Shown: piece by piece, positions 12,574 to 30,183 of the stretch
How positions within the stretch are numbered: position 1 is the first letter of the stretch
Layout of the letters: each line of letters begins with the position of its first letter
Source: CAVPRW01 sp046727435 [NCBI: bacterium]
GTDB taxonomy: Bacteria > Tectomicrobia > Entotheonellia > J063
Direction: 5' to 3'
Length of the DNA: 47,178 bases
Assembly (NCBI GenBank): GCA_046727435.1
Contig: JBKPCR010000005.1
Span: 1-47,178 of the forward strand
Made by a program: the position numbers and the translations under genes
Notes under the pieces: model-generated
The model's database searches: none
The model's input: the letters and a program-made list of their open reading frames with translations, nothing else
Told to the model about the DNA's origin: nothing

Positions 12574-13560
12574 ATGACGCGCCGCAGTATCGGGCTTCTC
12601 ATCGCCCTCGCCCTCGGCTTCCTCGTGGCGCCGCTCGCCGCCGAGGCGCAGCCGCCCACGCCCGTGCACCGGATCGGTGTGCTGCTTGATACGACCCCAG
12701 GACGAGACCCCTATGTGGAGGTGTTCCTGGAGGGGATGCGCGCGCTCGGCTATGTCGAAGGCCAGCACCTCGTCCTGGAGGTCAGCGGGGCGGAAGGGCA
12801 GTACGAACGGCTCCCTGACCTCGCGGCCGAGTTAGTCCGTCTCCCGGTGGATGTCATCGTGACCTATGGTACGCCGCCCTCCGTGGCCGCCAAGCACGCG
12901 ACCACGACGCTCCCCATCGTGATGATGAACGTGGGCGATCCGGTGGGGAGCGGCCTCGTCACCAGCCTCGCCCGGCCCGGCGGCAACGTCACCGGCGTGA
13001 CCTCCCTGTCCCCCGACCTCGTCGGGAAACAGCTGGAGTTCCTCAAGGCCGTGCTCCCCACTATCTCCCGCGTGGCCCTCCTCTGGAATCCCGCCAATCC
13101 CGCCAACGTCCTCAATGTGCGGGAGGCGGAGGTGGCGGCCCAGGCGTTGGGCGTCCAGCTGCACCGCGTGGAGGCGCGCGGTCCCGAGGCGTTTGACCGC
13201 GCCTTTGCGGCGATGACCCGTGCGCACGCGGGCGCGCTCCTCGTCATAGGGGACCGCGTGTTCCGTCAGCACCGCAGACGGCTCGCTGAGCTTGCGGCCA
13301 TGAGCCACCTGCCGACCATGCACACCATACGGGCGTATGTGGAGGCTGGCGGCCTCATGTCCTACGGGCATGACTCGCTCAACCTCAACCGACGCGCCGC
13401 CTACTACGTGGATCGCATCCTGAAAGGCACCAAACCTGCTGACCTGCCCGTCGAGCAGCCCAGCAAGTTCGAGCTGGTCATCAACCTCAAGACCGCTGAG
13501 GCGCTGGGCCTGACGATCCCCCCGACGCTCCTCTTCCAGGCCGACGAGCTGATCCGGTGA
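12574..13560 (+). CDS. ABC transporter substrate-binding protein, TrpX-like
   Basis: 328 residues with an N-terminal signal peptide (hydrophobic LIALALGFLVAPLAAEAQ, cleavage near residue 25). Family landmarks are RIGVLLD, GYVEGQ, AAKHATTTLPIVMMNVGDPV, SLARPGGNVTG, RVALLWNPANP and the C-terminal motif LKTAEALGLTIPPTLL. This is the periplasmic type-1 fold of the TrpX/YtfQ-like substrate-binding family, usually partnered with a permease and an ATPase. None is in the window, so it is an orphan. Two paralogs lie at 16.7 and 35.5 kb. The start follows CAGGAG by seven bases. Ligand unknown. Confidence 0.88.
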   Translation: MTRRSIGLLIALALGFLVAPLAAEAQPPTPVHRIGVLLDTTPGRDPYVEVFLEGMRALGYVEGQHLVLEVSGAEGQYERLPDLAAELVRLPVDVIVTYGTPPSVAAKHATTTLPIVMMNVGDPVGSGLVTSLARPGGNVTGVTSLSPDLVGKQLEFLKAVLPTISRVALLWNPANPANVLNVREAEVAAQALGVQLHRVEARGPEAFDRAFAAMTRAHAGALLVIGDRVFRQHRRRLAELAAMSHLPTMHTIRAYVEAGGLMSYGHDSLNLNRRAAYYVDRILKGTKPADLPVEQPSKFELVINLKTAEALGLTIPPTLLFQADELIR

Positions 13561-14045
13561 GCCGGCCAAGATGCCGGATCAGCGCCTGGCACGGAGCCTT
13601 CGCACCGCAAGTGGCCAGGCCCCTATGGCGCTGCCGCTGGTGGGGCGGCCAGCCGCCCGCGTCGTGATCGCTGTGGGGTGGCGGCAAGGTGACACCATCC
13701 ACGGCATCCGGGGGCTGGGAGATCCCAGGCGCCCGGTGGCTTCGCAGGGGCAGCTGTCGTGGTTGGGACCAGCTGGAGAAGGCTCATGCTAGGCATGAGG
13801 CGCGCCGGAAGCGGGAGGGCAGCGGACGCTGGAGGGCGTCGGCTCCAGGCCGTGGTTCGGCCGGGAAGCACGCCCGCCGTGGCCCCACTCCCAACTCTGC
13901 GACGCCCCGTGGTCGCCCACCCCAGGAGCCTGTGCAACCGCAGGAAGCGCGATTCGACCCCGCCCCCGATTTCGACACCACGAGACTTCTGCCGCTTACC
14001 GAATCTCCTCGGAGGCACTCGCGGTGTCGAGACGGTCGCGGTGCC
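13561..14045. other. Gap between convergent genes holding an attC-like element
   Basis: No gene seen. The middle holds a degenerate palindromic element (13788-13861) of the family found between the cassettes further right. Confidence 0.5.
13788..13861 (-). repeat. Degenerate attC-like element A
   Basis: On the minus strand it begins GCCGAAC and contains the family core GCCGACGCCCTCCAGCGTCC, then a CTCCCGCTTCC segment. The expected GTTRRRY end is not recognisable. The same core occurs in elements B, C and D. It lies downstream of the acyl-CoA dehydrogenase-like gene, as an attC should. Confidence 0.5.
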
Positions 14046-15218
14046 TCAGCGCCTCATCTGAAGACCAAAGCCGAGAAAATATTGGCCCGCCATCTCGATG
14101 TTCGAAGGCGCCACCGCAATGTGCTGCGTGGCCACGTGCACGTCGCGGAAGCAGCGTTCGAGGCGGCTGCTCGCATAGATCGAGGTCGTGCCGGCGGTAT
14201 TGAACATCAAGTCCACCGCCTCCGCCGCGCTCTGGGCTGCATGGGTGCTTGCCAACCGGACCCACGCGCTCACCTCATCGCTGATTTCCTCGGACCAGTT
14301 CGGACTTGGGGGCAGCTCGCGTGCGGTCTCGTACAGGAACGCGCGGCCGGAACCGAGTAGGGCCTCGGCGTGGCCGACTCGCTCCTGCACGGTGTGCTGG
14401 GTCGCGAGGGGACTCGTGGCCAGCGTGGCGGTCTTGGTCGCGGCCAGTTCCTTGAAGGCGTCGATCGCATCGCGCGCGATGCCGAGGGCGACCGCGGCCA
14501 CCGAAGGGAAGGCATAGGCGATATTTCTGAATGAGAAGGCCCCGGGCTCGAGGGGGCCGTCGAAGAGGAGCGGGAGCGACCGCTCCTCCGGCACGAAGAG
14601 GTCGGCGACCTGCCAGTCATGACTCCCGGTGCCGCGTAAACCCGCCGTGTACCAGGTGTCGAGGATTTGGCAGTCGGCAACGGGCAGGCAGAAGGCCCTG
14701 ATGTCCGGTCTACCGTCCGACCGCAGTCGTGGCCTTCCGTCCTCCATGACGATGCTGGGGCCAAGCATCCACTCGGCCTGATGACAGCCGCTCGCAAATG
14801 ACCAGCGCCCCGTCAGGCGGAAGCCTCCCGGCACCGGGATGGCCGCTCCCTTGGGCGGAAGGGCGCCAGCGACGACGGTGCTCGGGCCGCCGCGATAGAC
14901 CTCGCGCAGGGCCTTCGCTGGGAGATAGGAAGCGATCACTGCAGCATGCGAGGCAATCATCACGTTCCACCCGACGGAGCCGTCTTGCCGCGAGAGTTCC
15001 TCGATGACGTGCAAGATGGTCTCGTCCTCGGCCGCGGCGCCGCCAAGCGCTCGCGGTACCGCGAGCGCGAAGAGCCCGGCGTCGCGAATCGCCTCGAACA
15101 CTGGGCGAGACATGTGGCGCTCCTGTTCGCCGGCGCCGCGCCACTGCGCGACGATCGGTGCCAGGGCTCGCGCCCGCTCGACCCACTCGCCCCGCTGTAC
15201 GGCTGTATCTGTCGTCAT
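14046..15218 (-). CDS. Acyl-CoA dehydrogenase-fold flavoprotein, group D monooxygenase-like
   Basis: 390 residues from ATG 15218, which has GAGGAGC nearby; a start at 15242 is possible. The protein has the acyl-CoA dehydrogenase fold: helical N-terminus (FEAIRDAGLFALAVPRALGG), middle beta domain (GGFRLTGRWSFASGCHQAEW and TAGLRGTGSHDWQV), and a C-terminal helical bundle (FNTAGTTSIYASSRLERCFRD). The GFRLTGRWSFASG and RGTGS patterns fit the HsaA/HpaB/DszC-type flavin-dependent monooxygenases better than true fatty-acid dehydrogenases. A reductase partner is not nearby. Flanked by an attC-like element, it may be a cassette gene. The substrate is probably aromatic or sulfur-heterocyclic, by family only. 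Confidence 0.82.
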   Translation of the reverse strand: MTTDTAVQRGEWVERARALAPIVAQWRGAGEQERHMSRPVFEAIRDAGLFALAVPRALGGAAAEDETILHVIEELSRQDGSVGWNVMIASHAAVIASYLPAKALREVYRGGPSTVVAGALPPKGAAIPVPGGFRLTGRWSFASGCHQAEWMLGPSIVMEDGRPRLRSDGRPDIRAFCLPVADCQILDTWYTAGLRGTGSHDWQVADLFVPEERSLPLLFDGPLEPGAFSFRNIAYAFPSVAAVALGIARDAIDAFKELAATKTATLATSPLATQHTVQERVGHAEALLGSGRAFLYETARELPPSPNWSEEISDEVSAWVRLASTHAAQSAAEAVDLMFNTAGTTSIYASSRLERCFRDVHVATQHIAVAPSNIEMAGQYFLGFGLQMRR

Positions 15219-15284
15219 GTCCAACGCTCCTCTCTGCTCCAAGTATTCTCAGAACGATCGTTCTTCAGCACGCTCATAGCATTT

Positions 15285-15421
15285 TTCCGGTGATGCCTAG
15301 ACATAATGACTTCCGATGGGTAGGCTGACCTCCGGTTCACACCGCGGGTTAGCTAACCACAAGCCAGAGCCGCCTCGTGCATCACTCCATGCACGATCAC
15401 TCATGAACTCGGAGGTCAACC
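15285..15421 (+). ncRNA. IS110 left end, possible bridge-RNA region
   Basis: The 137 bases upstream of the IS110 transposase fragment are non-coding and structured. GGTTAGCTAACC is a perfect palindrome (15347-15358), and CGTGCAT...ATGCACG forms a seven-base stem (15376-15395). In IS110-group elements this non-coding end encodes the bridge RNA. Because the transposase is truncated, this would be a relic. Confidence 0.35.
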
Positions 15422-15637
15422 ATGCAGAACTCTAGCAAACTGTACGTTGGTCTGGATATGCATAAAGAGTCCATCGCCGTGGCCTATGCCCCGGAAGAGC
15501 AGGGTGCTGAGGTCGTCTTTCTGGGCACCATCGGCCCCCGGCAGGGCGACATCGATACCCTGGTCCACATGGCACAGGGGAAACATGCCAACCAAGTGGT
15601 GGTGGCCATCGCCCGTGAGGTGCCAAGCGCACGCTAA
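15422..15637 (+). pseudogene. IS110 family transposase, N-terminal fragment
   Basis: 71 codons beginning KLYVGLDMHKESIAVAYAPE, the start of the DEDD (RuvC-like) domain of IS110 transposases, with the first catalytic Asp at GLD. Homology ends near residue 58, and the rest of the catalytic domain and the C-terminal serine domain are missing. The fragment lies between the monooxygenase gene and a mosaic of other broken sequences, which marks this spot as a rearrangement site in the cassette region. Confidence 0.85.
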
Positions 15638-15711
15638 ATTCCGTATCCGTTCCCTGTAAACCTTTATCCTCCAGGAGGGACGCTCCGACCCTACGACGAG
15701 AAGCAGCCCCG

Positions 15712-15780
15712 GTCATGTCCTGTGTGAGCGTGGTGAGATCGGCATTGGGGGGCTCGCCATCGTCCAGATCGGCCCAGACG
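15712..15780 (-). pseudogene. Endonuclease/exonuclease/phosphatase fragment, copy 1
   Basis: On the minus strand it reads WADLDDGEPPNADLTTLTQ, nearly identical to part of the larger fragment at 21972-22226. Only about 23 codons survive. It shares roughly 85 percent of bases by eye with copy 2. Confidence 0.6.
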
Positions 15781-15825
15781 CGGTCATCTGCTCGAGCGAT
15801 ACATGCGCATCGAAGGTACCTATGG

Positions 15826-15890
15826 CAAACTCACACGACATCGGTGACTGTTACCCATGTCTCCAGACATTTTTGTGACCTATCTCTCCG
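15826..15890. mobile_element. Possible insertion-sequence end with repeated motifs
   Basis: Two related motifs, TGTTACCCATGTCTCCAG and TGTGACCTATCTCTCCGG, lie about 25 bp apart. Spaced repeats of this type occur at the ends of IS481-like and related elements as transposase-binding sites. No transposase gene is present, so the call is tentative. Confidence 0.3.
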
Positions 15891-15931
15891 GCCGGTCATG
15901 GTTCTGAATAACCGGTAGCTGCCAGAGGCCG

Positions 15932-16480
15932 CTATCCGCAAGCATCTTTGTTCCCGAAATGCTCGGGCTGATTAGACCAACCCTCCCAGCCTTCCTTGCT
16001 CCTCACCTTCACCCACCAACTGAACCTGAGCTCCTGTTTAAGCTCACCCCAGCATTCCTCCTTGTTTTCGCAGCGCGTGCCCGGTGAGCCGCCATAGGGG
16101 CTGAAGCCCAGATCTTCTTCCTGCATTGCACCGTTCCGCCATACTTTGAAGTGGCCCTCCCCCACATAGGTGTAGACCCATAAGACGTCGCCGGGCTTGT
16201 ACGCAGCGTGCGGCGTCTTGACGACGAAGCGGACGGGACGCGAATGCACCTCGCCGGTGATCGCTTCGACAGTGGCCCCGGCCTTCAGGAGCCCGACCAC
16301 TTTGGCGTTCTGATCGGGCTTGGCGTAGGCGACAGTATCCGTCTTCGTGTTCCAAGCCCGGCAGACACAGCACTCGAAGGGGCATGCGCCTTTGTCGATG
16401 TATGTCGGTGGCGGCGATTCCGCGCGCGTGGCGGCGCCTGGCCATAAGGCCACGGCGATGACGAACAGGAGCGTTTTCAT
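15932..16480 (-). CDS. Secreted SH3-like domain protein
   Basis: 182 residues from ATG 16480. The N-terminal signal peptide (KTLLFVIAVALWPGAATRAE) is followed by a Cys-rich stretch (CPFECCVCRAW, residues 34-44) and an SH3-like beta domain with AKVVGLLKAGATVEAITGEV. A C-terminal Trp-rich part contains EGWEGWSNQPEHFG. This resembles exported SH3b/DUF proteins of the cell envelope. The gene begins about 20 bases after attC-like element B, the spacing typical of a promoterless cassette gene. Specific function unknown. Confidence 0.7.
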   Translation of the reverse strand: MKTLLFVIAVALWPGAATRAESPPPTYIDKGACPFECCVCRAWNTKTDTVAYAKPDQNAKVVGLLKAGATVEAITGEVHSRPVRFVVKTPHAAYKPGDVLWVYTYVGEGHFKVWRNGAMQEEDLGFSPYGGSPGTRCENKEECWGELKQELRFSWWVKVRSKEGWEGWSNQPEHFGNKDACG

Positions 16481-16498
16481 CCGTCGTGCTCTTTGGCA

Positions 16499-16585
16499 GC
16501 TCACGCCCCTGCGTCAGCCGCGCCTGAAAGCGGGAGCGCCGCGGACGCTGGAGGGCGTCGGCTGCAGTGGTTGGTTCGGTTGGGG
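16499..16585 (-). repeat. attC-like element B
   Basis: On the minus strand it runs from CCCCAAC through GCAGCCGACGCCCTCCAGCG to CGCGGCTGACG and ends in a degenerate GTGAGC. The inner arms GCAGCCG and CGGCTGAC pair. The variable loop is nearly the same as in elements A, C and D. It lies between the ABC gene and the SH3-like gene. Confidence 0.6.
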
Positions 16586-16679
16586 ATGCCCCGTGGGGCC
16601 GTGGGTGAGGTACTGCCCATCCCGCGCCGCCGCCCCCTGCTGCCCGTGCCACGCCCCCGCACGGCTCCCCTGCGCACGC

Positions 16680-17666
16680 CTAGCGTATCACCTCGTCAGC
16701 CCGGAAGAGGAACGTCGGCGGGAACGTCACGCCGAGCGCCTCCGCCGTCTTCAGATTGACGACTAACGAGAACTCGGCCCGCTCAATGGGCAGGTCGGCG
16801 GGTTTGGCGCCTTGCAGGATCTTGTGCACCAAGACGGCGGAACGCCGGCACAGCGCGCGCGGGTCTGCCCCATACGCCACCAGGCTCCCCGCCTCGGCCA
16901 AGTGCCACCCGTACGCCATGGTCGGGAGCCGGTGCCGGAGCGCCAGCGCCAGGAGCGGCTGCCGATGCGTGGCAAAGAGCGGGGAGCCCATGATCAGGAG
17001 CGCGTCGGCACCGCCCTGGACCATGGCAGTGAAGGCCGCTTCGAAGGCGGCGGGAGCGCCCGCCTCCACGCGCTGGAGCTGCACGCCCAGCGCCCGCGCT
17101 TCCCGCGTGAGGTTGCTCGGCACCTCGGCGTGGGCCGCCTGGGCCGGATCGACCAGGACCGCCACCCGGGAAATCGTCGGCACCGCCTCCTTGAACAGCT
17201 CGAGACGCTTCCCCGACACCTCGATGGCCGGGAGTTCCAGCCCGGTGAGGTTGCCCCCGGGTCGTGTCACACTCGCGACGAGCCCCTGTTCCACCAGCCC
17301 ATCCGACACGCCGACGACGATGGGAATGGTGGTGGTGGCGCGCTTGGCAGCCCACGCGGCGGGGTCCGAGACCGTCCAGAAGACATCTGGAGTGCGTTGG
17401 ACCAGCTCAGCGGCCAGCGCGGGGAGCCGGTCGCTGTGCCCCTCGCCGTACCGATAATCGAAGAGGATGGTCTGTCCCTCCACATAGCCGAGGTCGCGCA
17501 ATCCCTGCTGAAAGGGCAAGAGACAAGGCGTCGGACGCTCTTCAGAAGCGGGTTCCAGCACCGCGACCCTGGGGATTTTCTCCCGCGGCTGCGCTGTGCT
17601 GGCGAGCGGTGCCGCGAAGAGGCTCAAGGTGAGTGCCACGAGGCACCTAACAGCGCTGTACCACAT
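16680..17666 (-). CDS. ABC transporter substrate-binding protein, TrpX-like (second copy)
   Basis: 328 residues with a signal peptide (ALTLSLFAAPLASTAQ). Landmarks of the family are RVAVLEP, GYVEGQ, AAKRATTTIPIVVGVSDGLV, SVTRPGGNLTGLE, RVAVLVDPAQ and LKTAEALGVTFPPTFL. It ends with EVIR and TAG, the conserved C-terminus of the family. It is clearly diverged from the copies at 12.6 and 35.5 kb and lacks their shared upstream block. No permease or ATPase is nearby. It lies between a half attC and attC-like element B, so it may have been captured as a cassette. Confidence 0.87.
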   Translation of the reverse strand: MWYSAVRCLVALTLSLFAAPLASTAQPREKIPRVAVLEPASEERPTPCLLPFQQGLRDLGYVEGQTILFDYRYGEGHSDRLPALAAELVQRTPDVFWTVSDPAAWAAKRATTTIPIVVGVSDGLVEQGLVASVTRPGGNLTGLELPAIEVSGKRLELFKEAVPTISRVAVLVDPAQAAHAEVPSNLTREARALGVQLQRVEAGAPAAFEAAFTAMVQGGADALLIMGSPLFATHRQPLLALALRHRLPTMAYGWHLAEAGSLVAYGADPRALCRRSAVLVHKILQGAKPADLPIERAEFSLVVNLKTAEALGVTFPPTFLFRADEVIR

Positions 17667-17711
17667 GGTCGTCTCCCCGAGTCGGTCTCATGCTGATGTC
17701 TTCTTGCCAAT

Positions 17712-17733
17712 GAAGCTGAACCTATTGTTAGGC
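17712..17733 (-). repeat. Half attC-like site (R' side only)
   Basis: On the minus strand GCCTAACAATAGGTTCAGC matches the R'-L' half of typical attC sites. No matching right half follows before the ABC gene 50 bases on. The stop codon of the upstream small gene (TAA) lies inside GCCTAAC. Likely a deletion remnant. Confidence 0.5.
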
Positions 17734-17962
17734 GACACGCCTGCTCTTGACACGTTTCCAAACTCCTCTCGCAACGAGCACCGGCAGGATCAAGACCGCC
17801 AGCCAGCCTGCGATGGCTGCCATGACCTAGAGTGGCGGCGGAAGCATGTCGGCATGCGGCCCCGCCAGCACGATCCCCATGACAAACGCCGCGACGCCCA
17901 TGCCGAGGAGGGCAGCAAAAAAACGCCAGGGCGGTCAGCGCCTCTCTCAGAAGCACAGTCAC
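17728..17962 (-). pseudogene. Small membrane protein, disrupted by frameshift and amber codon
   Basis: Starting at GTG 17962 the frame reads TVLLREALTALAFF. If the seven-T run near 17920 had six T, it would continue as AALLGMGVAAFVMGIVLAG, then PHADMLPPPL, a TAG (17827-17829), and in the same frame MAAIAGWLAVLILPVLVARG to a TAA inside the half attC. The joined product would be about 77 residues with two membrane helices. The part from ATG 17823 (31 residues) could still be made. It follows the DUF3565 gene by nine bases. Confidence 0.5.
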
Positions 17963-17971
17963 GCGTTGCTC

Positions 17972-18181
17972 CTACGTGCGGCGATCTGGCGGCGCCCCTG
18001 CGTCGCATTTGGCACAAGACAGCACGCGGCCGAGGGCTTTGGACCTGCCCTCTGCCGTGATGACCCACGGCCGGTTGCTCCATGGTGGATGATGCCGGAC
18101 ATGTTGGTTGTGGCCACACTCGAGCTCAGCCACCCAGTGCTGCTCATCGTCCTGATGGAAGCCGACAATGCGGCGCTCCAT
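17972..18181 (-). CDS. DUF3565 family protein
   Basis: 69 residues from ATG 18181, beginning ERRIVGFHQDDEQHWVAELE, then CGHNQHVRHHPPWSNRPWV and a terminal CAKC. This matches the DUF3565 layout: a small domain with CGH and CxxC probable metal ligands. The start is only 15 bases after the GTTAGGC end of attC-like element C, a typical cassette gene position. A longer upstream frame merely translates the palindrome. Function of the family is unknown. Confidence 0.8.
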   Translation of the reverse strand: MERRIVGFHQDDEQHWVAELECGHNQHVRHHPPWSNRPWVITAEGRSKALGRVLSCAKCDAGAPPDRRT

Positions 18182-18196
18182 GGGTGTTCCCTCGTC

Positions 18197-18278
18197 GCCT
18201 AACACAGGCGCTGAGCCACGTCTGGAAGCGGGAGCGCCGCGGACGCTGGAGGCAGGCATTTTCATGCCTTTGTTGGGC
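18197..18278 (-). repeat. attC-like element C
   Basis: On the minus strand it begins GCCCAAC (RYYYAAC) and ends GTTAGGC (GTTRRRY), 82 bp in all. The outer arms GCCCAACAAAGGC and GCCTGTGTTAGGC pair at 11 of 13 positions. The loop carries the family core CCTCCAGCGTCCGCGGCGC. It separates the SDR gene from the DUF3565 gene and is the best-formed example of its type. Confidence 0.75.
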
Positions 18279-18321
18279 TGCACACCCTCGCGTGACGCAG
18301 GCTCGCACCAGGCTTGACGCC

Positions 18322-19077
18322 TTAGCGGGTCGTGTAGCCGCCGTTGGCGAAGATCGTCTGTCCCGTGATCCACCGGCCGTCGGTCGCCAGGAATTTCACG
18401 ATCGGAACGATGTCCTCGATCTTGGTGAGTTCGCCGTTCATGCTCTGAGACTTGTGGTAGGCGACCGCGTCCGGCGTCTCGGCGGGGTAGAAGAACGGGG
18501 TATCCATCGGTCCCGGCGCTACGTTGTTGACCGAGATGCCGCGCGGGCCAAACTCCTTCGCCGCCGCCCGCGTGAAGTGTTCCACCGGCGCCTTGCTGCC
18601 GGCATAGGTGGAGTACAGCCCGGTGAATGCCGCCAGGAGCGAGGTCACGATGGTAATGATCGTGCCGCCATCGTGCATCCGCTTCCCCGCCCCCTGGATG
18701 AAGAAATACGCCGCCTTGGCGTTGACGGCGAACATGCTGTCGTACTCTGCCTCGGTGGTCTCGACGAACGGCTTCTTGAGCACCTTGCCGACGGTATTGA
18801 CGGCGATGTCGACGCGGCCATAGCGCTTGATCGCCTCATCGAACAGCCTGACGACTTCAGAGACCTTGGTCAGGTCTCCCTGGATGGCGAACGCATCGCC
18901 GCCCGCTTCCGTGACGGCTTTCACCGTCGTATCGGCCGACACCTTCGTGGCGTCGCTGTTGTAGTGCACGACGACGGAAGCGCCGTCGGCCCCAAACGTC
19001 CGGCTGATGAGTCCGCCCAGATTCTTGGCTCCGGCTCCGACGACGACCACCTTGCCTTGTAGTGTCTGATGCGCCAT
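18322..19077 (-). CDS. Short-chain dehydrogenase/reductase (SDR)
   Basis: 251 residues with the classical SDR layout: a nucleotide-binding motif VVVGAGAKNLGG (about 10-21, a variant of TGxxxGxG), NTVG after the fourth strand, a catalytic Ser in VTSLLAAF and the YAGSK motif (YxxxK) about 150-160. The end, ITGQTIFANGGY, is typical. It acts as an NAD(P)-dependent oxidoreductase in the cytoplasm; the substrate is unknown. The AAAGGAGG ribosome-binding site is strong. attC-like elements E and C flank it on both sides, so it is a complete single-gene cassette. Confidence 0.9.
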   Translation of the reverse strand: MAHQTLQGKVVVVGAGAKNLGGLISRTFGADGASVVVHYNSDATKVSADTTVKAVTEAGGDAFAIQGDLTKVSEVVRLFDEAIKRYGRVDIAVNTVGKVLKKPFVETTEAEYDSMFAVNAKAAYFFIQGAGKRMHDGGTIITIVTSLLAAFTGLYSTYAGSKAPVEHFTRAAAKEFGPRGISVNNVAPGPMDTPFFYPAETPDAVAYHKSQSMNGELTKIEDIVPIVKFLATDGRWITGQTIFANGGYTTR

Positions 19078-19117
19078 CGCGTTCCTCCTTTCAAGCTCAG
19101 TTGGTCACACCCGGTAA

Positions 19118-19216
19118 GCCCAACGCTCCCGCTGAGCTGCGGCCCACAGCCACCAAGGCCAGGAATACCCACAAAAGCCTGCGCTGTGGGCCGTCAGCTC
19201 CAGTGGGTTGTTCGGC
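19118..19216 (-). repeat. attC-like element E
   Basis: On the minus strand it begins GCCGAAC and ends GTTGGGC. Its long arms, with GGAGCTGACGGCCCACAG on one side and CTGTGGGCCGCAGCTC on the other, pair almost fully with small bulges, as in folded attC sites. It is 99 bp long. It lies directly upstream of the SDR gene and downstream of the muconolactone-isomerase-like gene. Confidence 0.75.
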
Positions 19217-19290
19217 TTTTCGCGCCGCCGCATCCCAGGACGCTGCCCGCCGTGGCGTTGCGCCGCTTCGCTGTGCTGTGCCGTCACCAC

Positions 19291-19626
19291 TTAGCGAGGA
19301 GTTGCCTTCACTTGCTCAAGTATTTGCCGGACCCGGGTTAACCGAGACTGCCAGCTTTCCAGCGGAGTGACTTGCCACTTGAGCAGGGCCCAGAAAGGCA
19401 AGCTCATCAATATCTCACCTACCTCGTCGTTGGACGCCGCGTCGACGATAAATGCGGTACCCCTGGTCCCAGCCGGAGCCCCTCCAGCCAGCACTTTCCC
19501 TTCTGCCTCCAGCTTCACCAGGCGTTCCAAACTGGGAATAACGAGAGATTCGAGGTACTGGGCAAACTGTTGAGGGGGAACCGGATAGCCAGGATCGACG
19601 ATTTCTCCATGGACCAGGTATCGCAT
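19291..19626 (-). CDS. Muconolactone isomerase-like (ferredoxin-like fold) protein
   Basis: 111 residues from ATG 19626, chosen because AAAGGAGGATGG precedes it. The sequence MRYLVHGEIVDPG, LVKLEAEGKVLAGGAPAGTR, FIVDAASNDEVGEILMSLPF and WQVTPLESW matches the dimeric alpha-beta barrel fold of muconolactone isomerase-like and YCII-like proteins. No specific catalytic residue can be assigned. The frame stays open for another 124 codons upstream, but that part has no domain and is probably non-coding leader. The downstream neighbour is attC-like element E. Confidence 0.75.
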   Translation of the reverse strand: MRYLVHGEIVDPGYPVPPQQFAQYLESLVIPSLERLVKLEAEGKVLAGGAPAGTRGTAFIVDAASNDEVGEILMSLPFWALLKWQVTPLESWQSRLTRVRQILEQVKATPR

Positions 19627-20979
19627 CTTCCATCCTCCTTTCACTTCGATTTCAAGGGTGTCACGTTCCCTGACTTGTTCATCAGTACGAATACCAGGAG
19701 TCTTCACCCGCAGTCTGTAGAGGGATTTGCCTAACGAGAAAGTGTTTTGATTGCCCGCATATACAATGCCTGTAGTTGCGCGGCCTGGTGTGGCATGAGC
19801 CAGCTCATAAGACACCACCTCCCTTCCTTCCGCTAGCTGGAAGCCGAACTCTTGATTATATAGACATCCGTCCAGATATCCTTCCCGAGACCTCGACGGT
19901 TGGTGTCGAGATATCCCCCAATCACGGGGGTATATGCTGAAATTTTGCCGCATATTAGCACAGGCGGGGATTTTATGGCTCAAGCTTTTATGCGTCATGG
20001 CCGGCTGCAGGTCACCGCGGGAAGACAGCGCCGTCCATCATGGCTGTCGGCCTTTCGAGAAGCGCGGTGAGACGCGTGTCCCGGCGCGCAGCCGCACGTC
20101 TGCAACGGGCACACACGCGCGGTCGAGCGGTCCCGGGGGCCGTGGTGAGCGCCCCGCCCTTCAGGAGACTGAGAGGCGCGTGAGGCGTTGCGGCCTCAGG
20201 AGGCGCGTCACGGCGGGAGCTGTGGCGTACCGGTGGGGACGATCGCCAGGCATCGGGGGCCTCCTCCATCATGGGAGCGAGATATGACTCAATGACTGTA
20301 GGTTGGTGCGATTGTACTGGGGCTGGTCTGTGGTGTCAACGCCGACCTGGTGACCCGGGTGATCGCAGCAGGCCGAGGGTGTCGCCAATTCAGGCATGCC
20401 CCGTGATCCTGGCGCGCCCCTATGAGCACACGACAGCCCAGCCCACCCCATCGGTGCAGTCTTTCGCGGCACCCCTGGGTCTGCCGGACCAATTCGAGCA
20501 GGTCACAACTGGACATGGCCGACCGTATTCCCCCTTGGCATCAAAGCCGTGTTGATACGGGTGACGAAGTTTGCGACGTAGAACGTCCCGGAGCACGACC
20601 GGTCAGACGTGCTCCCTGGCTTCTTGCCGAGGGCGAAAGCATCGTTTATCTGCTCAGAAACTTCAGTTGCCGCCGTCTCCGTTTCTGCCCTCAGGCCACC
20701 ACGCAGCGTATGGAGATCTCATTATAATGTCCCTAAATCGGAGCGGAGCTAACCAGACCTTGTCTCATCAGCAAGTCCACGACCGTTGACGCGCCGGTTG
20801 ACAGGCTCTTTCAATCGGCCACATGCGCACCGAGGCTTGCCGGCACTTCCATGGGAGCTGTTAGGTTGGTTGACCCCTTCCCTTGAAAATAGCCGATCGT
20901 TTTCATGCCTGTTGGTGCCCCGGCGGGGCATGGTACTTATTTTGCCATATTATCGAAATTGAAGAAATTCGGCGCATCA
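19627..20979. other. Long gap with one dispersed repeat
   Basis: About 1.35 kb with no confident gene. It holds the dispersed repeat at 20040-20280 and a GC hairpin (GCCCCGGCGGGGC near 20923) beyond the AT-rich genes. An open frame continuous with the muconolactone-like gene reaches 19998 but has no domain. Confidence 0.45.
20040..20280. repeat. Dispersed repeat, copy 1
   Basis: About 240 bp resembling 24842-25105. Shared blocks include GAGGCGCGTGAGG, GTTGCGGCCTCA and TCCCGGCGCGCA. On the minus strand both copies contain an open frame of 86 codons with the shared peptide PHAPLSL and ALTTAPG. It could be a small gene pair or a non-coding repeat. Confidence 0.5.
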
Positions 20980-21387
20980 TCACTGACGGCCTTTGTCTAT
21001 CTCAACCCATAAAACATTTTCATCAGCAAGACGGAATGTACTTAAGATTTTATTCTTGAGCGCATTGCTTGGATCATCACCTCTTAGATCCGATCCCTCA
21101 TAAGGTGTTTCGGTCTCATATTGCCATCCATCGATAATCTGGCGCTGGCCATTAATATTACGGGTGTTAGACATCTGGATTTTACCCCACCATGAAACAT
21201 TTGACGTAAGCCAATTTTCGAAGTAATCTTTGTTTTTCTTGTAGAGATTGGAGTATCTCCCGCTAGAAGGAATCCAAAAGCGCAATACTAGTTTGATTTG
21301 AGATTTATCGGGCGTATCAGTCTTATCACTACTTTCCAGATATTTTGCGAAATTAACATGGACCTTGTTATCATTTGTAATGCTCAC
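20980..21387 (-). CDS. AT-rich hypothetical protein
   Basis: 135 residues, lysine- and asparagine-rich, in a segment markedly more AT-rich than its surroundings. The sequence (VHVNFAKYLES, then FWIPSSGRYSNLYKKNKD and WGKIQMSNTRNINGQRQIID) is soluble-looking with several Trp residues. I do not recognise a family. It lies 51 bases downstream of the membrane-anchored gene on the same strand, so the two are likely one transcription unit. The base composition points to recent transfer. Confidence 0.65.
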   Translation of the reverse strand: MSITNDNKVHVNFAKYLESSDKTDTPDKSQIKLVLRFWIPSSGRYSNLYKKNKDYFENWLTSNVSWWGKIQMSNTRNINGQRQIIDGWQYETETPYEGSDLRGDDPSNALKNKILSTFRLADENVLWVEIDKGRQ

Positions 21388-21438
21388 CAGATTAGTACGC
21401 CATAGATTCCTAATAACCTCAGAGAACTGATCAAACGA

Positions 21439-21936
21439 TCAATTTGTATTTGATTCTTTTTTTATCTCTCCATAAAGTTCGCTTATAGTCTTTCCAGATT
21501 CCTTCATTAGTTTATCCATTAAAATAGATTCTGCTCGACTTTGCTCTTTTTGTATTACAAACTGCTCAAATAAAATTGAAGTTCTATCTTCCGGAATTTG
21601 TCTAACGTAGTATCTTCTTCTTGAATCATAATCAATTACACTATCCGCCCTCAAGCTCAATATAATCTTTCTTAATTCTTGCTTTGATGATTGTTTTGGC
21701 GGAATATGTGTGCGATAATTTTCATTTGCTATTTCCTTCAGGTACTCATTGTAAAGGCTGTCAAAATCAAGTGCGCGTTTATTGTCCAAAACATCATAAA
21801 CGGCTGTCCTTTGCCAATTGTTTATCTCCTTGTCTCTATCTTCGGTGCGTTTCGAAGCCATTTGGTATGCGAGCGCAGCTATAGCTACAATAGCAGACAC
21901 TAAAGCAATTGCCGTAGCAATTCTTCCCTTTTCCAT
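21439..21936 (-). CDS. AT-rich membrane-anchored protein with winged-helix-like domain
   Basis: 165 residues. The N-terminal helix (IATAIALVSAIVAIAALAY, about 6-24) is a membrane anchor. After a charged linker comes a region with WQRTAVYDVLDNKRALDFDS and ELRKIILSLRADSVIDYDSR (about 42-105) that looks like a winged helix, followed by a charged helical tail (EQSRAESILMDKLMKESGK). Family not recognised. It heads a two-gene AT-rich unit inside the cassette region. A cytoplasmic winged helix tethered to the membrane suggests a sensor or regulator, but this is inference only. Confidence 0.65.
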   Translation of the reverse strand: MEKGRIATAIALVSAIVAIAALAYQMASKRTEDRDKEINNWQRTAVYDVLDNKRALDFDSLYNEYLKEIANENYRTHIPPKQSSKQELRKIILSLRADSVIDYDSRRRYYVRQIPEDRTSILFEQFVIQKEQSRAESILMDKLMKESGKTISELYGEIKKESNTN

Positions 21937-21971
21937 TATTCATTCTCCTATCTTCACCCGCGCCACCAGCG

Positions 21972-22226
21972 TTACCGCATCCACAGCTCGACGAGCACCG
22001 GACAGTGATCGGAGAGCTGATCCCACACCGCTTTGTCTTGCTGACGATAGGTCACCTGGCGAAACGAGGTGCGGTCAACCCAGGGCAACACCCGCCGGTC
22101 GACGACGATGTGATCGATGAACTCCGTGAAGTTGTTATCCCGGCAGCTCACGGGCATCTCCTGTGTCAGCGTGGTGAGGTCGGCGTTGGCGGGCTCGCCA
22201 TCATCCAGGTCGGCCCAGGCCTTTAG
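21972..22226 (-). pseudogene. Endonuclease/exonuclease/phosphatase C-terminal fragment, copy 2
   Basis: The minus strand reads ADLDDGEPANADLTTLTQ, then FTEFIDHIVVDRRVLPW and LSDHCPVLVELWMR. The FIDHI and SDH motifs are the late catalytic motifs of the EEP (DNase I-like) fold. The N-terminal two thirds are missing. The frame is joined upstream to unrelated sequence that resembles a group II intron end. A shorter copy lies at 15.7 kb. Confidence 0.7.
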
Positions 22227-22229
22227 ATG

Positions 22230-22346
22230 GCGCGTACTCCAGACCCCACCTCGCGATGACGCCCTGGCGCTTCCCTGGTCCTTCGGCTCCACGCACACCT
22301 GGACAGGGGACTTTCACTCCCAAGCATGACAGCATGCACGGCACAC
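22230..22346 (-). mobile_element. Possible group II intron 5'-end fragment
   Basis: On the minus strand the stretch starts GTGTGCC (group II 5' consensus GUGYG). It continues with the hairpin GGGAGTGAAAGTCCC and then a block GAGCCGAAGGACCAGG and GGGGTCTGGAG, which resembles domain I of bacterial group II introns. No domain V and no reverse transcriptase are present, so it would be a truncated relic. It directly abuts attC-like element F. Confidence 0.45.
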
Positions 22347-22398
22347 ACGCTTGAGTTCAGCCGCCGCCGTAGGCGGTCGGCTCAACGAATAGTTAGGC
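22347..22398 (-). repeat. attC-like element F, right end replaced
   Basis: On the minus strand it begins GCCTAAC, then TATTCGTTGAGCCGACCGCC, a short loop, GGCGGCGGCTGAACTCAAGC. This is the closest match here to classical integron attC sites (R', L', L''). The expected GTTAGGC end is replaced after the first two bases by intron-like sequence. It follows the SnoaL-like gene. Confidence 0.75.
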
Positions 22399-22423
22399 CA
22401 GATTCTTCATGGAAGCGCTAGGC

Positions 22424-22828
22424 TCAGCTGGCAGGGACCGAGTGATGCTCATGCATGACCGTCCACCGACCGCCGATTTTGCGAAAGCAAATGGTCAAGC
22501 GAAAATCGAGCTCAACTTTATCCCCGTTTGCCTCCGTTCCACCACAGCGCATAAGGGCAGTGCCAAACGCCACATCATCACCCGCAGTAATGTTTAGCTC
22601 GCTGATGTCAAAGACCCCCGAGTCCTGAAACCAAGCAAAGAATACATCCCACGTTTTTTTGTAAGCTTCAATTCCCTTCGATTGAGCCGGAGGCGGGACG
22701 TCGAACATCAATATCTCCGGGGAGTGGTTGGCCATAATTCCATCGAGATTCTTGGTGCGGACTGCCCTTGCCCAACTCTCGACTAGGTTGCAGATCTCGG
22801 CTTCATCTGTCGATCTATTGGTGCGCAT
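22424..22828 (-). CDS. SnoaL-like/DUF4440 family protein
   Basis: 134 residues. The pattern EICNLVESWARAVRTKNLDG, ILMFDVPPP, KGIEAYKKTWDVFFAWF and ICFRKIGGRWTVMHEHHS is typical of the NTF2-like cone fold (SnoaL_3 / DUF4440). Members include isomerases, hydrolases and uncharacterised stress proteins; the substrate cannot be told. The gene starts about 60 bases after attC-like element G and ends just before element F, so it is a single-gene cassette. No signal peptide. Confidence 0.85.
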   Translation of the reverse strand: MRTNRSTDEAEICNLVESWARAVRTKNLDGIMANHSPEILMFDVPPPAQSKGIEAYKKTWDVFFAWFQDSGVFDISELNITAGDDVAFGTALMRCGGTEANGDKVELDFRLTICFRKIGGRWTVMHEHHSVPAS

Positions 22829-22885
22829 ACTCTTGCCTATCTCCTTGATTGGGCTTGCTGCAAGTATCGGTAGTCACGCTTCGCA

Positions 22886-23045
22886 GCCTAATGTTGCCCT
22901 TGCAGCGGCGCGCCGCTGCAAGGGCCTGTTGAGACTGTCGAAAAACCCCGAATGTCGAAAAACAGGGGCCCTAACTCCTGTAGTTTCAAGGGTGACCTGC
23001 TGCGAAAAATCCAGAAATTGGACTTTTTCGACAGTCTCGTTAGGC
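22886..23045 (-). repeat. attC-like element G, interrupted by a MITE
   Basis: The outer ends on the minus strand are GCCTAAC and ATTAGGC. Removing the 108-bp insertion and one GTT restores a 49-bp site with a perfect inner palindrome (GCCCTTGCAGCGGCG and its complement). The perfect inner dyad lacks the bulges of classical attC sites. It separates the GYD and SnoaL-like genes. Confidence 0.65.
22931..23038. mobile_element. MITE with 15-bp terminal inverted repeats
   Basis: 108 bp bounded by GAGACTGTCGAAAAA and its exact complement TTTTTCGACAGTCTC. GTT flanks both ends (22928-22930 and 23039-23041) as a likely three-base target duplication. There is no coding capacity. The internal TGTCGAAAAAC is repeated near the left end. 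The parent transposon is not in the window. Confidence 0.85.
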
Positions 23046-23133
23046 GGCCGCTTCAGGGCTCGGACGTGCGATCACCTCTCACACGGCCCTGAGCCGGCTG
23101 CTCCGTCGTTGACTGAGCACGCCTTGAAAGGCG

Positions 23134-23424
23134 TTACGGCATCGTGCCGACAATTTTCTTCATGTCCTCCAAAGAGAAGCCACGCAACGTCTCCGTCCGC
23201 ACGTTGCCGAGCGAGCCCACCTGCAGCAGGGCGGTGGTAACCGCTTCATCGCTCCCCTCCATGACCGCCACGATATCGTAATGCCCGACGGTGTAGTAAA
23301 GGTCCTTCACCCTGACCCCCAGCTTTTCAGCCATCGCCCTGAACGCTTCGTACCGATCCGGCGAGTCCTTGATGTTCCGGATTCCCTGATCAGTAAAGTT
23401 CAGAAGACTAATAAACGTTGCCAT
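23134..23424 (-). CDS. GYD domain protein
   Basis: 96 residues from ATG 23424 with AAAGGAGATGG upstream. The sequence MATFISLLNFTDQGIRNIKD, KLGVRVKDLYYTVGHYDIVA and LGNVRTETLRGFSLEDM is the GYD family (named for its Gly-Tyr-Asp motif, here GHYD), a small ferredoxin-like domain of unknown function often encoded near detoxification genes. A longer frame upstream only translates the palindromic region. Flanked by attC-like elements D and G. Confidence 0.9.
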   Translation of the reverse strand: MATFISLLNFTDQGIRNIKDSPDRYEAFRAMAEKLGVRVKDLYYTVGHYDIVAVMEGSDEAVTTALLQVGSLGNVRTETLRGFSLEDMKKIVGTMP

Positions 23425-23554
23425 GATCCATCTCCTTTGGTGAGCGATACCGTACTGGCGGTCGCCGACCGAGCATGCTGGAAGAAGACCGCCATTCCTC
23501 CAGAGCTCCGGATGCCACAACGTCTGCAAGATTCCGACTGCCGCGTCACGCTGC

Positions 23555-23612
23555 GCCTGAGCCGCGCCCGGAAGCTGAAGCGGAGCGGACGCTGGAGGGC
23601 GTCGGCTCAGGC
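23555..23612 (-). repeat. attC-like element D (inner part)
   Basis: GCCTGAGCCG and CGGCTCAGGC form the arms, with the family loop GACGCCCTCCAGCGTCCGC between them. The RYYYAAC and GTTRRRY boxes are not intact. It lies between the ABM gene and the GYD gene. Confidence 0.55.
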
Positions 23613-23795
23613 CGATGTGGGCCCCCGCACAGTGAAGGACACGGCCCAGGGGTTTTATCTGCCTCACTCACGGGGGGTCCTTGCACCGTGTCCCGCGCCT
23701 GCCTTCTGACGCCCCCGTCACGTCTGCTTGGAGGCGGGTAGCACTGGAGAGCCCCCTGGGGGTGTGGTCCAGCGGCGCGCCCTGGGAGGAGGGTG

Positions 23796-24428
23796 TCATA
23801 CCGATCGCACGACTTCGTAGACCTCGCCGCTGAGCGGCGCGCTCGCGTACTCGCTGGCCGGATGCGCTCCCACGAACGCCTGGAGTTCCGGGATCTGCGA
23901 GCCAGGACTCACGGCCCTGAGGGCATCCATCGTGCTATAGAATTGGACCACCTGGTACCTATACTGATGGCCGAACAAACGCCCCAATCCATTCGAGACG
24001 AACCCCGGCACATATTGCTTACGGAGTTCGAAGACCTCCTTGCGCGTGCGCTCAAAGCTTGCCGCGTTGCCTGGTCGCGGGTCAAGAGTCCAATCAACCA
24101 GGACAGCATAGGCAGGCTGCCCTTCCCCTGTGACGCGAAAAAGCACGTCATATGCTTCCTGCGGCCGGCCCGGGGTGACCAACCCTTGGATGGGGTTCGC
24201 CTCCACGAAGGTGCTGAACACCTCGCCTTTGGCCCAGGCTTGTCGCGCTTCCCGGCTCTCCCAGAGCATGAGGAAGACATGTTTGGCCGGATAACTGAGG
24301 GAATTTAACAGTGCTCCGGTCTGGAAACCGCGCTGCGCTTTCGCCAGGTCACTGAGCTGAGCCCACCAGGCCTCAAACGCATATGCCTTACCTGGGACAA
24401 CCATGACCTCTGTCCGTATTCCATACAT
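23796..24428 (-). CDS. Two-domain antibiotic biosynthesis monooxygenase (ABM)-like protein
   Basis: 210 residues. Two ferredoxin-like ABM/NIPSNAP-type halves are visible: residues 1-100 (YGIRTEVMVVPGKAYAFEAW, then HVFLMLWESREARQAW) and 105-210 (AYAVLVDWTLDPRPGNAASF, then YRYQVVQFYSTMDALRA). The internal duplication suggests a pseudo-dimer. Family members are cofactor-free oxygenases or haem-binding proteins. It is the right-most gene of the minus-strand cassette series. The start at ATG 24428 follows AAAGGAG. Confidence 0.75.
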   Translation of the reverse strand: MYGIRTEVMVVPGKAYAFEAWWAQLSDLAKAQRGFQTGALLNSLSYPAKHVFLMLWESREARQAWAKGEVFSTFVEANPIQGLVTPGRPQEAYDVLFRVTGEGQPAYAVLVDWTLDPRPGNAASFERTRKEVFELRKQYVPGFVSNGLGRLFGHQYRYQVVQFYSTMDALRAVSPGSQIPELQAFVGAHPASEYASAPLSGEVYEVVRSV

Positions 24429-25562
24429 GGCGTTGACTCCTTTCTGCGATGTGACACTGCGGCTTGCCCTCCATGCGCATGCCCGGTATGGCGTCGTGCA
24501 TGATCATGACTGGCTTGGGATTCAGGCGCAGGAACACCACGTCTGGGTTCTAACGACATAGAAGGAAATTCAAACGCTATTTTGCCGATGACCGCTGTTG
24601 CTTCAGCCGGGGGATACCTCCTTTCTACTCGGGTGGAACTTGGGCCTGACTACTGATTAGATGGAAAGGTTTCCGTAGACCCTTCCCGACAACCATATGG
24701 TTGATGTCAAGATCACCTCCTATGACAGCTGTCTCGGCGGAAATTGTTCAGCCGCATCACCGACAGACAGATAGTATGCGCCGAGCGTTTCGGCGTCATT
24801 ACGCGTTACAGCTCAACGCAGGAACACCGTGCCGTTTATACGAGCGGTCAGCCTTTCGAAAAGCGCTGCGAGACACGCGTCCCGGCGCGCACTCGCACGT
24901 CTTCAAGGGCGACCACGCGCGGTCGATCGGGGCCGGGAGCCGTCGTGAGAGCCCTGCCCTTGGCAAGGCTGAGAGGCGCGTGAGGAGTTGCGGCCTCACC
25001 AGCAATGGGGATTGCGCCAGGAGGAACCTCATGGCGAGAGGAGAAGCGATGAGGATGGGGGAGGACGTCGCCTGCGTCATCAGCGGTCTCCTCGGCTCTT
25101 GCAGCCAAGAGCGCGGCAGCATCAGGGCGAGTTGTTGCGACTATCGTCGGGTGTGAAATGCCATGTCAACAGGATGATTATAGGATTCCGATGGCAAAAG
25201 CCATGCCCACGTGCCCCATGCCTGCCAGCCCGCACCATCGCGCGAGGGGAGCTGCAGGACAGGGAGCGCGGGTGCGCAGATCTCCACATCGGAGAGGGTG
25301 AAAACGTCGCGAACATGCCGTGGAAATGCCCGCACACGCGACCGAGCCGAGGAAGTGTTCGATCCTGAGCACCATGCGTCGATTTACACAGAAGCGGGAT
25401 AGACGGTCACACACGCAGTGCGGTCGCCGGTGAGGCCGGCGACGCGGTGGACGCGCGTGATGTCGAGGGCTTCGGTGTGCGCCATCACTAGCCTTGATGT
25501 GGCCGAGGCGGAGGCCTAGCCCGAGGACATGACGGTCAGAACGCCTGCTTCTGCAAAGTCCC
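24429..25562. other. Long gap with dispersed repeat
   Basis: About 1.1 kb with no confident gene. It contains the dispersed repeat at 24842-25105. Everything else looks like shadow frames. Confidence 0.45.
24842..25105. repeat. Dispersed repeat, copy 2
   Basis: Related to 20040-20280 over about 160-230 bp, with shared blocks GAGGCGCGTGAGG, TTGCGGCCTCA and CGTCCCGGCGCGCA. The minus-strand frame shares PHAPLSL and ALTTAPG with copy 1. The two copies bracket the right half of the cassette region. Confidence 0.5.
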
Positions 25563-28994: not shown

Positions 28995-29613
28995 CACCGA
29001 CCCTCCATCACTCTGGCGCTTGCGCCGATTCTGCGTCATTGCAGGTATATGCTGACTTATATGCGAGAAATGCCACGAGTATATCAGCAACGGCGGGAAG
29101 TAAAACGATAAATTGTACCGGCTTGGGGCGATCCGTCACAGGACGGATCACGAGGCAAGAGCACCTGTCTATGCAACCGGAGAAGGGCTGCCGCCCGCGG
29201 TCACCTGAGGTCGCTACGCCTGAACCATGACGTCTGAGGAGTATGATCAGGAGGCATTATGGCCTGCTAGAGCGACCATCGGTCTGGAACCTGCCGGCTC
29301 ACCCGCGCATCCATGACGGGCATTCTATCGGACTGGCCGTGAAGGATCGCCCACCGCGGGGCGCAGCCGGCTCCGCACCACGAGAGGGCTTGCGGGCGAC
29401 GCTGCCGGACGCGGCGCATGGCAAGGCGATTGAGCGCAGATCTCCCATACGATAGTCTAGATACGGTGATTGAGACGCTCATGTGTTGCGCTAGGCATAA
29501 AGCTTATGTCTCATGACTTCATCTGATCCTGCATCAAATAACCATAGACGACTTGTCATCTCTCTTGATGGTCTATTGTTTATCACACGTGTATTATCAC
29601 ATCGATGATGATC

Positions 29614-29792: not shown

Positions 29793-30183
29793 GCTTGATA
29801 ATCCTGTAGGTTGGCGAGGTCGACCGTCGTGGTGCGCATGACGCCGAGCATGGGACGGCATCTGACGTCTCCATGCATGTGTTGGCGGCCTCAGAGGACG
29901 TGCCACTATGAGGAGGAACAGCGATGACGACACACTGAACTGATCAGATCGGGAGTATTGAAGCGGTGGCCACAGCGGCTCACACCACCCTTGCCGGAGG
30001 ACGTGAACCGCCGTGGCGTGCACGTGATGCCGATGCCACTCGGCACCACGCAGGAGATGATACGATGATCCTACCATTCTTGCAGCCATGCGTGCAAGGC
30101 TTGAGGCGGCGATGGCGGAACATGACGCCACCGTCTTTCCCCTCCGCCGACGCGATCGTCGGCATCACGAGGAGGGGGTAGCC

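What the first reader, a model, noticed from the sequence alone, without database searches (positions are those of the whole stretch)
13788..24428. Integron-like cassette array without a visible integrase
At least nine short genes lie on the minus strand, and six or more palindromic elements separate them. Elements C (18197-18278), E (19118-19216), F (22347-22398) and G (22886-23045) have RYYYAAC-type left ends, and C and E also keep GTTRRRY-type right ends, in gene orientation. Gene starts follow the elements closely (15 bases for DUF3565). Elements A, B, C and D share one loop sequence, as expected of a host-specific attC family. Cargo is small detoxification-type enzymes. Established: this layout defines integron cassettes or CALINs. 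Inference: the genome holds a large sedentary array whose integrase is elsewhere or lost.
Basis: partly seen in the sequence, partly recalled or inferred. Interest (0 to 1): 0.85.

Follow-up and report, generated by a model that had tools for sequence, protein, structure and literature searches.

The report
Decayed integron cassette cluster lacking integrase
This stretch of an uncultured bacterium's DNA is a worn-down row of small movable genes, most followed by the folded tag that an integron integrase recognises; it is a real example of a known kind, and a relative carries about a hundred matching tags plus integrase genes.

Summary
A covariance model built only from 12 attC sites of another genome (MAG G001) finds six sites in the window, all on the minus strand within 13781-23623, at E from 6.6e-15 to 0.0019 (E, D, A, B, F, C). 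Apart from a mirror of E, nothing else in the 47 kb reaches E 0.05. In controls it finds 14 sites in three class 1 integron plasmid pieces and nothing below E 0.5 in three unrelated contigs. Site E is textbook. F resembles the attC that follows aadA1 on plasmids. A-D share a loop motif that 41 of 95 G001 sites also carry. No integrase was detected in the window. G001, which carries homologues (63-74%) of a flanking window protein, has three integron integrases and about 116 attC matches. So this is a CALIN, and a decayed one: only C and E keep both R boxes, A and C have lost arm pairing, and G carries a 108-bp insert. 'Large sedentary array' is shown for the relative, not for this genome. Known kind, new lineage; ordinary in mechanism.

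The parts
13781..13861 (-). attC site A (shared loop; left end GCCGAAC, right end ATGAGCC broken; arm pairing weak), last site in reading direction
   Evidence: R1 39.6 bits, E 9.1e-9; shared loop; arm pairing no better than shuffles, 1769 of 2000
14046..15242 (-). acyl-CoA dehydrogenase-like gene before site A
   Evidence: PF08028 2.6e-25
15422..15637 (+). likely remnant of an IS110-type transposase N-terminus, opposite strand, inside the cluster
   Evidence: NF033542 E 0.0012, 18 bits, far below its 140-bit cut-off, positions 1-51 of 343; no Pfam match
15932..16480 (-). gene of unknown family (listed ORF runs to 16504 and overlaps site B; ATG at 16480 and signal-peptide look judged by eye)
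   Evidence: no Pfam match
16498..16580 (-). attC site B (CAGCCG(A)CGCC/GGCGCGGCTG arm with extrahelical A; right end GTGAGCT)
   Evidence: R1 39.6 bits, E 9.2e-9; arm matched by 58 of 2000 shuffles
16680..17666 (-). ABC transporter substrate-binding protein gene
   Evidence: PF04392 3.4e-39
17972..18181 (-). DUF3565 gene, ATG 15 bases after site C
   Evidence: PF12088 2e-32 on 17972-18169; start read
18197..18278 (-). attC site C: both R boxes canonical (GCCCAAC/GTTAGGC), shared loop, but left arm no longer pairs
   Evidence: R1 20.7 bits, E 0.0019; arm score 4, matched by 1826 of 2000 shuffles
18322..19077 (-). short-chain dehydrogenase gene
   Evidence: PF13561 1.9e-47
19118..19216 (-). attC site E, textbook: GCCGAAC...GTTGGGC, 17-bp arm with extrahelical A (a second extrahelical G by eye)
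   Evidence: R1 61.4 bits, E 6.6e-15; 0 of 2000 shuffles as good
19291..19626 (-). muconolactone isomerase/YCII-like gene (listed ORF runs to 19998; a ribosome-binding-site-like stretch precedes the internal ATG, by eye)
   Evidence: PF02426 1.8e-10 on residues 140-218 of the long ORF
20980..21936 (-). two A+T-rich ORFs (37.5% GC, window 62%) without Pfam match
22341..22398 (-). attC site F, short type like the attC of aadA1 cassettes; right end broken (GCGTGTGTGC)
   Evidence: R1 29.2 bits, E 8e-6; arm matched by 47 of 2000 shuffles; blastn to plasmids, listed E 3e-10 to 0.04, lying 3' of aadA1 in the two such records opened
22424..22828 (-). SnoaL/NTF2-like gene, stop codon 25 bases before F
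   Evidence: PF13474 7.4e-20; PDB 3f7s 1.9e-20; spacing
22886..23045 (-). element G: attC-like 30-base perfect palindrome with a 108-bp inverted-repeat insert (22931-23038) flanked by AAC
   Evidence: R1 only 14.3 bits, E 0.12
23134..23424 (-). GYD-domain gene
   Evidence: PF08734 4.5e-27
23543..23623 (-). attC site D: 15-bp arm with extrahelical A, shared loop, both R boxes damaged
   Evidence: R1 52.7 bits, E 1.9e-12; 0 of 2000 shuffles as good
23796..24428 (-). ABM (antibiotic biosynthesis monooxygenase-like) gene, first gene of the cluster
   Evidence: PF03992 5.1e-10

Best explanation
A CALIN: a decayed cluster of at least six integron attC sites, all in one orientation and without a neighbouring integrase. 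Each cassette is one gene plus its attC. The cassettes were inserted by an integron integrase recombining the folded bottom strand of attC at the G/TT point of the R' box. In a relative, integrase genes are found on contigs other than those where attC sites were read. Since then the cluster has been eroding: four of six R' boxes are broken, two sites have lost arm pairing, one attC-like element is interrupted by a small inverted-repeat insert, and a likely transposase fragment and A+T-rich DNA lie inside. Shown: attC-type sequence and structure, orientation, a gene ending 25-184 bases before each site, no integrase detected in the window, a relative with integrases. Inferred: past insertion by IntI, and that only E (perhaps C) could still recombine if an integrase acts in trans.
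For: Model R1 (12 sites of G001, 23 pairs, 94.5% of cells paired, 14 pairs with changes on both sides, covariation score reached by 0 of 500 shuffles) hits six window sites on one strand. Positive and negative controls behave. In G001, 95 sites were kept in 25 of 28 stretches searched; the 21 stretches with two or more each show one orientation (20 opposite-strand matches dropped). 41 of 95 carry AGCGTCCGC, as do 4 of 6 window sites. G001 has three integrases over the TIGR02249 cut-off. F matches the attC 3' of aadA1. Genes end 25-184 bases before the next site. The five best G001 matches of a window protein are 63-74% identical.
Against: Site spacing (840-3125 bases) is wider than in most G001 arrays. 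The arms of A and C pair no better than shuffles, so these rest on loop sequence and R boxes. G is not significant. The stretch between E and F (3.1 kb) has no site although it could hold several cassettes. No contig of G001 fetched here shows an integrase and R1 attC sites together, so that link is by genome, not by adjacency. R1 was trained on G001 sites of the same loop family as A-D, so A-D are less independent of it than E and F. One G001 integrase has a weak tblastn match over 150 aa at 4967-5383 (26%, E 0.13), in an ORF without a Pfam or NCBIfam match.
Confidence: 0.92

Rival explanations
1. The sites are single cassettes inserted independently by an integrase at secondary chromosomal sites (attG-like), not the remains of one array. 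Each right end would then be ordinary chromosome.
For: Four of six sites have a non-GTT right end, B, D and F each reading GCG then TG. Gaps are wide and hold other remnants. In G001, 2 of the 3 sites with GTG aligned at R' are the last site of their stretch.
Against: All six share one orientation. C and E have GTT right ends with a gene close behind. 19 of 21 last sites in G001 keep GTT, though several lie near contig ends. Simple decay explains broken boxes without this.
Confidence: 0.1
2. The repeats are another palindromic repeat family (REP- or MITE-like) spread between genes.
For: The A-D loop is strongly conserved, and G does contain a MITE-like insert.
Against: Extrahelical bases, R boxes and compensatory changes match attC. 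The same loop motif sits inside 41 of 95 attC sites read in G001, most of them in same-orientation runs. E and F lack the loop yet fit.
Confidence: 0.02
3. A live integron fragment whose integrase lies just outside the window, so that 'CALIN' is only an effect of contig length.
For: No whole genome is held; the relative has three integrases.
Against: An integrase would be expected upstream of the first cassette (above 24.4 kb). The 22.7 kb there holds a cyclase/TPR gene and others, none an integrase among the ORFs scanned. The sites are decayed.
Confidence: 0.06

Closest known systems
CALIN (cluster of attC sites lacking integron-integrase; IntegronFinder, PMC9024848, passages read)
   Same: Several attC sites in one orientation, single genes between them, no integrase nearby; that paper cites the proposal that CALINs are degraded integrons.
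   Different: Four of six R' boxes broken and foreign inserts inside; host near a lineage of which few genomes are held.
attC arrays of the relative MAG G001 (SXND01, 'Proteobacteria bacterium isolate F1-120-MAGs186')
   Same: Same attC architecture and, for A-D, the same loop motif; homologues of a window protein at 63-74%.
   Different: About 116 matches and three integrases there; six sites and none detected here.
attC of aadA-type cassettes in class 1 integrons
   Same: Site F aligns over 62 bases at 81.8% with the attC after aadA1; also 52 bases at 90.6% with an attC-like stretch beside ere(A) on LC623924.
   Different: Different gene (SnoaL-like) and a broken R' box.

Membership tests
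attC recombination site | R''/R' boxes RYYYAAC and GTTRRRY | tested here: met
   Met on both sides in C and E only (E with one mismatch); left box only in A, B and F; neither in D
attC recombination site | Paired arms with an extrahelical base on one side only | tested here: met
   E, D, B and F with extrahelical A (0, 0, 58 and 47 of 2000 shuffles as good); A and C fail this test
attC recombination site | Fits a covariance model of attC sites | tested here: met
   Six sites, E 6.6e-15 to 0.0019; controls. Model made here, not IntegronFinder's; G not met (E 0.12)
attC recombination site | Recombined by IntI as folded bottom strand | not testable with these tools
   needs an in vivo assay
CALIN | At least two attC sites clustered in one orientation | tested here: met
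   Six on the minus strand, gaps 840-3125 bases
CALIN | No integron integrase nearby | tested here: met
   Best tblastn of the three G001 integrases in the window E 0.027, inside a cyclase gene; no integrase domain in the 30 ORFs scanned
Complete integron | intI with attI and Pc next to the first cassette | tested here: not met
   No intI detected in the window; attI and Pc not searched for
Sedentary chromosomal integron with a large array | Tens of similar attC sites in the same genome | tested here: inconclusive
   Genome not held; true of relative G001

The most novel reading that the evidence does not exclude
The cluster is a landing zone where integrases working from other loci dropped single cassettes at non-attC sites, so that right ends read GTG instead of GTT, and two of the genes brought their own promoter with a long leader (about 20339-19850 and 25169-24650). 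That would make it cassette dispersal outside arrays in a poorly known lineage.
Probability: 0.08. Interest if true: 0.55.

Novelty: new member of a known kind. Interest (0 to 1): 0.33.

Why it matters
It places a real, decaying cassette cluster near a lineage whose whole phylum has five genomes in the collection searched here, and shows that a relative holds about a hundred attC sites with three integrases. It also shows an aadA-type attC behind a gene that is not a known resistance gene, in a bacterium that is probably environmental (inferred), which bears on where the attC sites of resistance cassettes come from. The mechanism itself is well known.

Tried and rejected
Rfam at gathering threshold gave nothing in the window; at E up to 10 on 13000-25500 it gave six matches, E 3.2 to 8.8, all below their gathering scores, so a suspected group II intron domain V near 23.1 kb is not supported. 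Three of the five genome pattern hits (two Sphingomonas, one Paenibacillus) were set aside as chance: their flanks show no attC features by eye and R1 finds nothing below E 0.5 there. For the model, 3 of 15 aligned G001 sequences were dropped before building (one partial, one short and misaligned, one with an extra base). For the counts, 20 of the 120 matches were dropped, each on the opposite strand and overlapping a kept site that scores higher; at L087 4937-5033 the overlap is only 21 bases, so that one may be a separate site. Site C of the window was added. The 28 G001 stretches were chosen because earlier searches pointed to them, so they are not a random sample. In G001 only the best 150 of 5603 first-look candidates were scored, so 116-120 is not a full count, and it includes a few mirror matches. 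The SnoaL protein gives no tblastn match to the LC623924 stretch with the F-like attC. The promoter-leader repeat has no match in plasmids, viral contigs (exact pattern only) or five genomes, no Pfam or NCBIfam match for its two 86-aa ORFs, and only modest folding scores (z -1.56 and -2.35). My notebook entry calls it 'not coding-like'; on re-reading that is too strong (see Noticed in passing). Naming G001's phylum failed: a paper search for its isolate name, its accession prefix and one assembly number recalled from memory found none.
Full report
What was claimed.

Checking the sequence. A loop of 28 bases is shared by four places, all on the minus strand; none is expected in 100 shuffles, although the pattern was drawn from these places. 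Element E (19118-19216) has RYYYAAC-type (one mismatch) and GTTRRRY ends and a 17-bp arm interrupted by a single extrahelical A on one side. No Rfam family reached its gathering score in the window.

Finding relatives. No whole genome is held for the window. A pattern scan of genome contigs (84,980 species by the tool's description) for the shared loop gave five stretches. Two lie in one MAG, SXND01 ('Proteobacteria bacterium isolate F1-120-MAGs186', here G001); three, in Sphingomonas (two) and Paenibacillus, look like chance. In G001 one of the two places (C197:3956-4037) is a textbook attC in a run of eight same-orientation sites; the other (C132:1420-1501) is less regular.

An attC model that owes nothing to the window. 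Twelve G001 sites were aligned and a structure with both extrahelical positions was written by hand. 94.5% of cells pair, 14 of 23 pairs show changes on both sides, and the covariation score is 0.507 against a shuffled mean of 0.126. The model (R1) was run over the window with filters off. Its six best places are E, D, A, B, F and C, all minus strand, E-values 6.6e-15, 1.9e-12, 9.1e-9, 9.2e-9, 8e-6 and 0.0019. The next are the mirror of E (0.0029), a plus-strand place at 13458 (0.063) and element G (0.12); 20 more follow up to E 5. As controls, R1 found 14 sites at E<=1.3e-4, all in gene orientation, in three class 1 integron plasmid pieces (2 in L064, 4 in L065, 8 in L067), none in a fourth plasmid piece (L066) whose annotation shows no integron, and nothing below E 0.5 in the three chance contigs; a mirror (E 0.043) and one weak place (E 0.22) in the integron pieces complete the list. 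The 14 control sites score 24.7-45.9 bits; the window's six score 20.7-61.4.

Site F is independent support. By blastn it resembles 1935 plasmid records at an E limit of 1; the 20 listed have E 3e-10 to 0.04. In the two aadA1 records opened (E 8e-5 and 0.04), the match begins a few bases after the aadA1 stop. F follows its own SnoaL-like gene by 25 bases.

The relative. G001 has three integron integrases over the curated cut-off, one of them with a TGA inside. It has 120 R1 matches at E<=0.1 and 116 at E<=0.001 (150 of 5603 candidates scored). R1 was run on 28 G001 stretches plus the window. After 20 opposite-strand matches were dropped, 95 G001 sites in 25 stretches remain: 85 have GTT at the aligned R' and 78 have AAC at R''. 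The 21 stretches with two or more sites each have a single orientation, with gaps mostly of 0.5-1.5 kb. The integrase genes start about 0.4, 1.3 and 1.1 kb from contig ends, and no R1 site was found in the stretches of those contigs that were fetched. Assembly breaks may hide the junction, so I cannot show an integrase beside an array. In the family of G001, R1 matches at E<=0.001 number 116, 7, 0 and 1 in four genomes. Of the four genomes of its order only G001 has an integrase at E<=1e-60. The 1175-aa cyclase/TPR protein at 25563-29090 is 63-74% identical to its five best G001 matches (three further G001 matches 34-54%) and at most 52% to the other genomes, which suggests, without proving, that the window comes from a near relative of G001. 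Against that, a GmrSD-type protein of the window was found in G002 only, at 31%, among the five genomes of the phylum, and the promoter-leader repeat in none of the five.

The window as a cluster. In reading direction the order is ABM, D, GYD, G, SnoaL, F, a nuclease-like fragment and two A+T-rich ORFs, MIase-like, E, SDR, C, DUF3565, ABC substrate-binding, B, an unknown gene, a likely IS110 remnant on the other strand, acyl-CoA dehydrogenase, A. Gene stop to site is 25-184 bases. No integrase domain is among the 30 ORFs scanned. tblastn of the three G001 integrases gives at best E 0.027 inside the cyclase gene, and 0.13 over 150 aa at 4967-5383 in an ORF of no known family.

Decay. GTT right ends remain in C and E only. 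B, D and F read GTG at the crossover triplet, and A reads ATG. Arms of A and C pair no better than shuffles. G carries a 108-bp element (22931-23038) with 15-base inverted ends and AAC on either side, as a 3-bp target duplication would leave. A 76-base fragment at about 15703-15777 recurs at 22143-22218 at 87%.

Mechanism and standing. From established knowledge of integrons (recalled), IntI recombines the folded bottom strand of attC at G/TT; cassettes enter one by one and can be left behind when the integrase is lost or when DNA is rearranged. By the published rule (at least two attC, no integron integrase; PMC9024848, passages) this is a CALIN, and that paper cites the proposal that CALINs are degraded integrons. 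Taxon-specific attC families are also described (PMC8352920, passages), which fits the shared loop. The right-end pattern would also be expected if single cassettes had been inserted at secondary sites (attG; recalled, and named in the start of the abstract of PMC12901181 in search listings), but six sites are too few to decide.

Verdict. Real, correctly recognised, a new member of a known kind, modest interest. I did not search for print reports of integrons in G001's phylum, because its name is not known to me.

Noticed in passing
window about 20339-19850 and 25169-24650, minus strand: Two copies of a promoter-plus-leader module: sigma70-like hexamers (TTGACA-17-TACAAT; TTGACA-18-GATAGT) align, and a core of about 230 bases is 73-83% identical; it precedes the MIase-like and ABM-like genes. 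Structured RNA or short reading frame is open: 4 of 57 predicted pairs show double changes, but in the 92-base part 9 of 16 differences fall in one codon position of a frame shared by two 86-aa ORFs, while the 140-base part gives 15, 15 and 8.
   Followed up: partly
window 22931-23038: A 108-bp inverted-repeat, MITE-like element next to an attC-like palindrome with AAC on both sides; its exact 15-base end was not found in the other loci held.
   Followed up: partly
window 20980-21936: A+T-rich island (37.5% GC) with two ORFs without Pfam match.
   Followed up: no
window 15703-15777 and 22143-22218: The same 76-base fragment, 87% identical; the ORF at 21972-22298 has a weak match to the C-terminus of exodeoxyribonuclease III (TIGR00633 E 0.013, below cut-off).
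   Followed up: partly
window 2038-4679 and 30088-31611: NrS-1 polymerase HBD-like and Prim-Pol replication proteins, suggesting mobile elements on both sides.
   Followed up: no
L087 2962-3043, L028 5332-5413, L084 12375-12415: Rare attC sites of G001 with GTG instead of GTT at the aligned R' (3 of 95); two of the three are the last site of their stretch.
   Followed up: partly
L067 470-2125: On plasmid pYKBP039, six attC matches about 319 bases apart, apparently a run of similar small cassettes.
   Followed up: no
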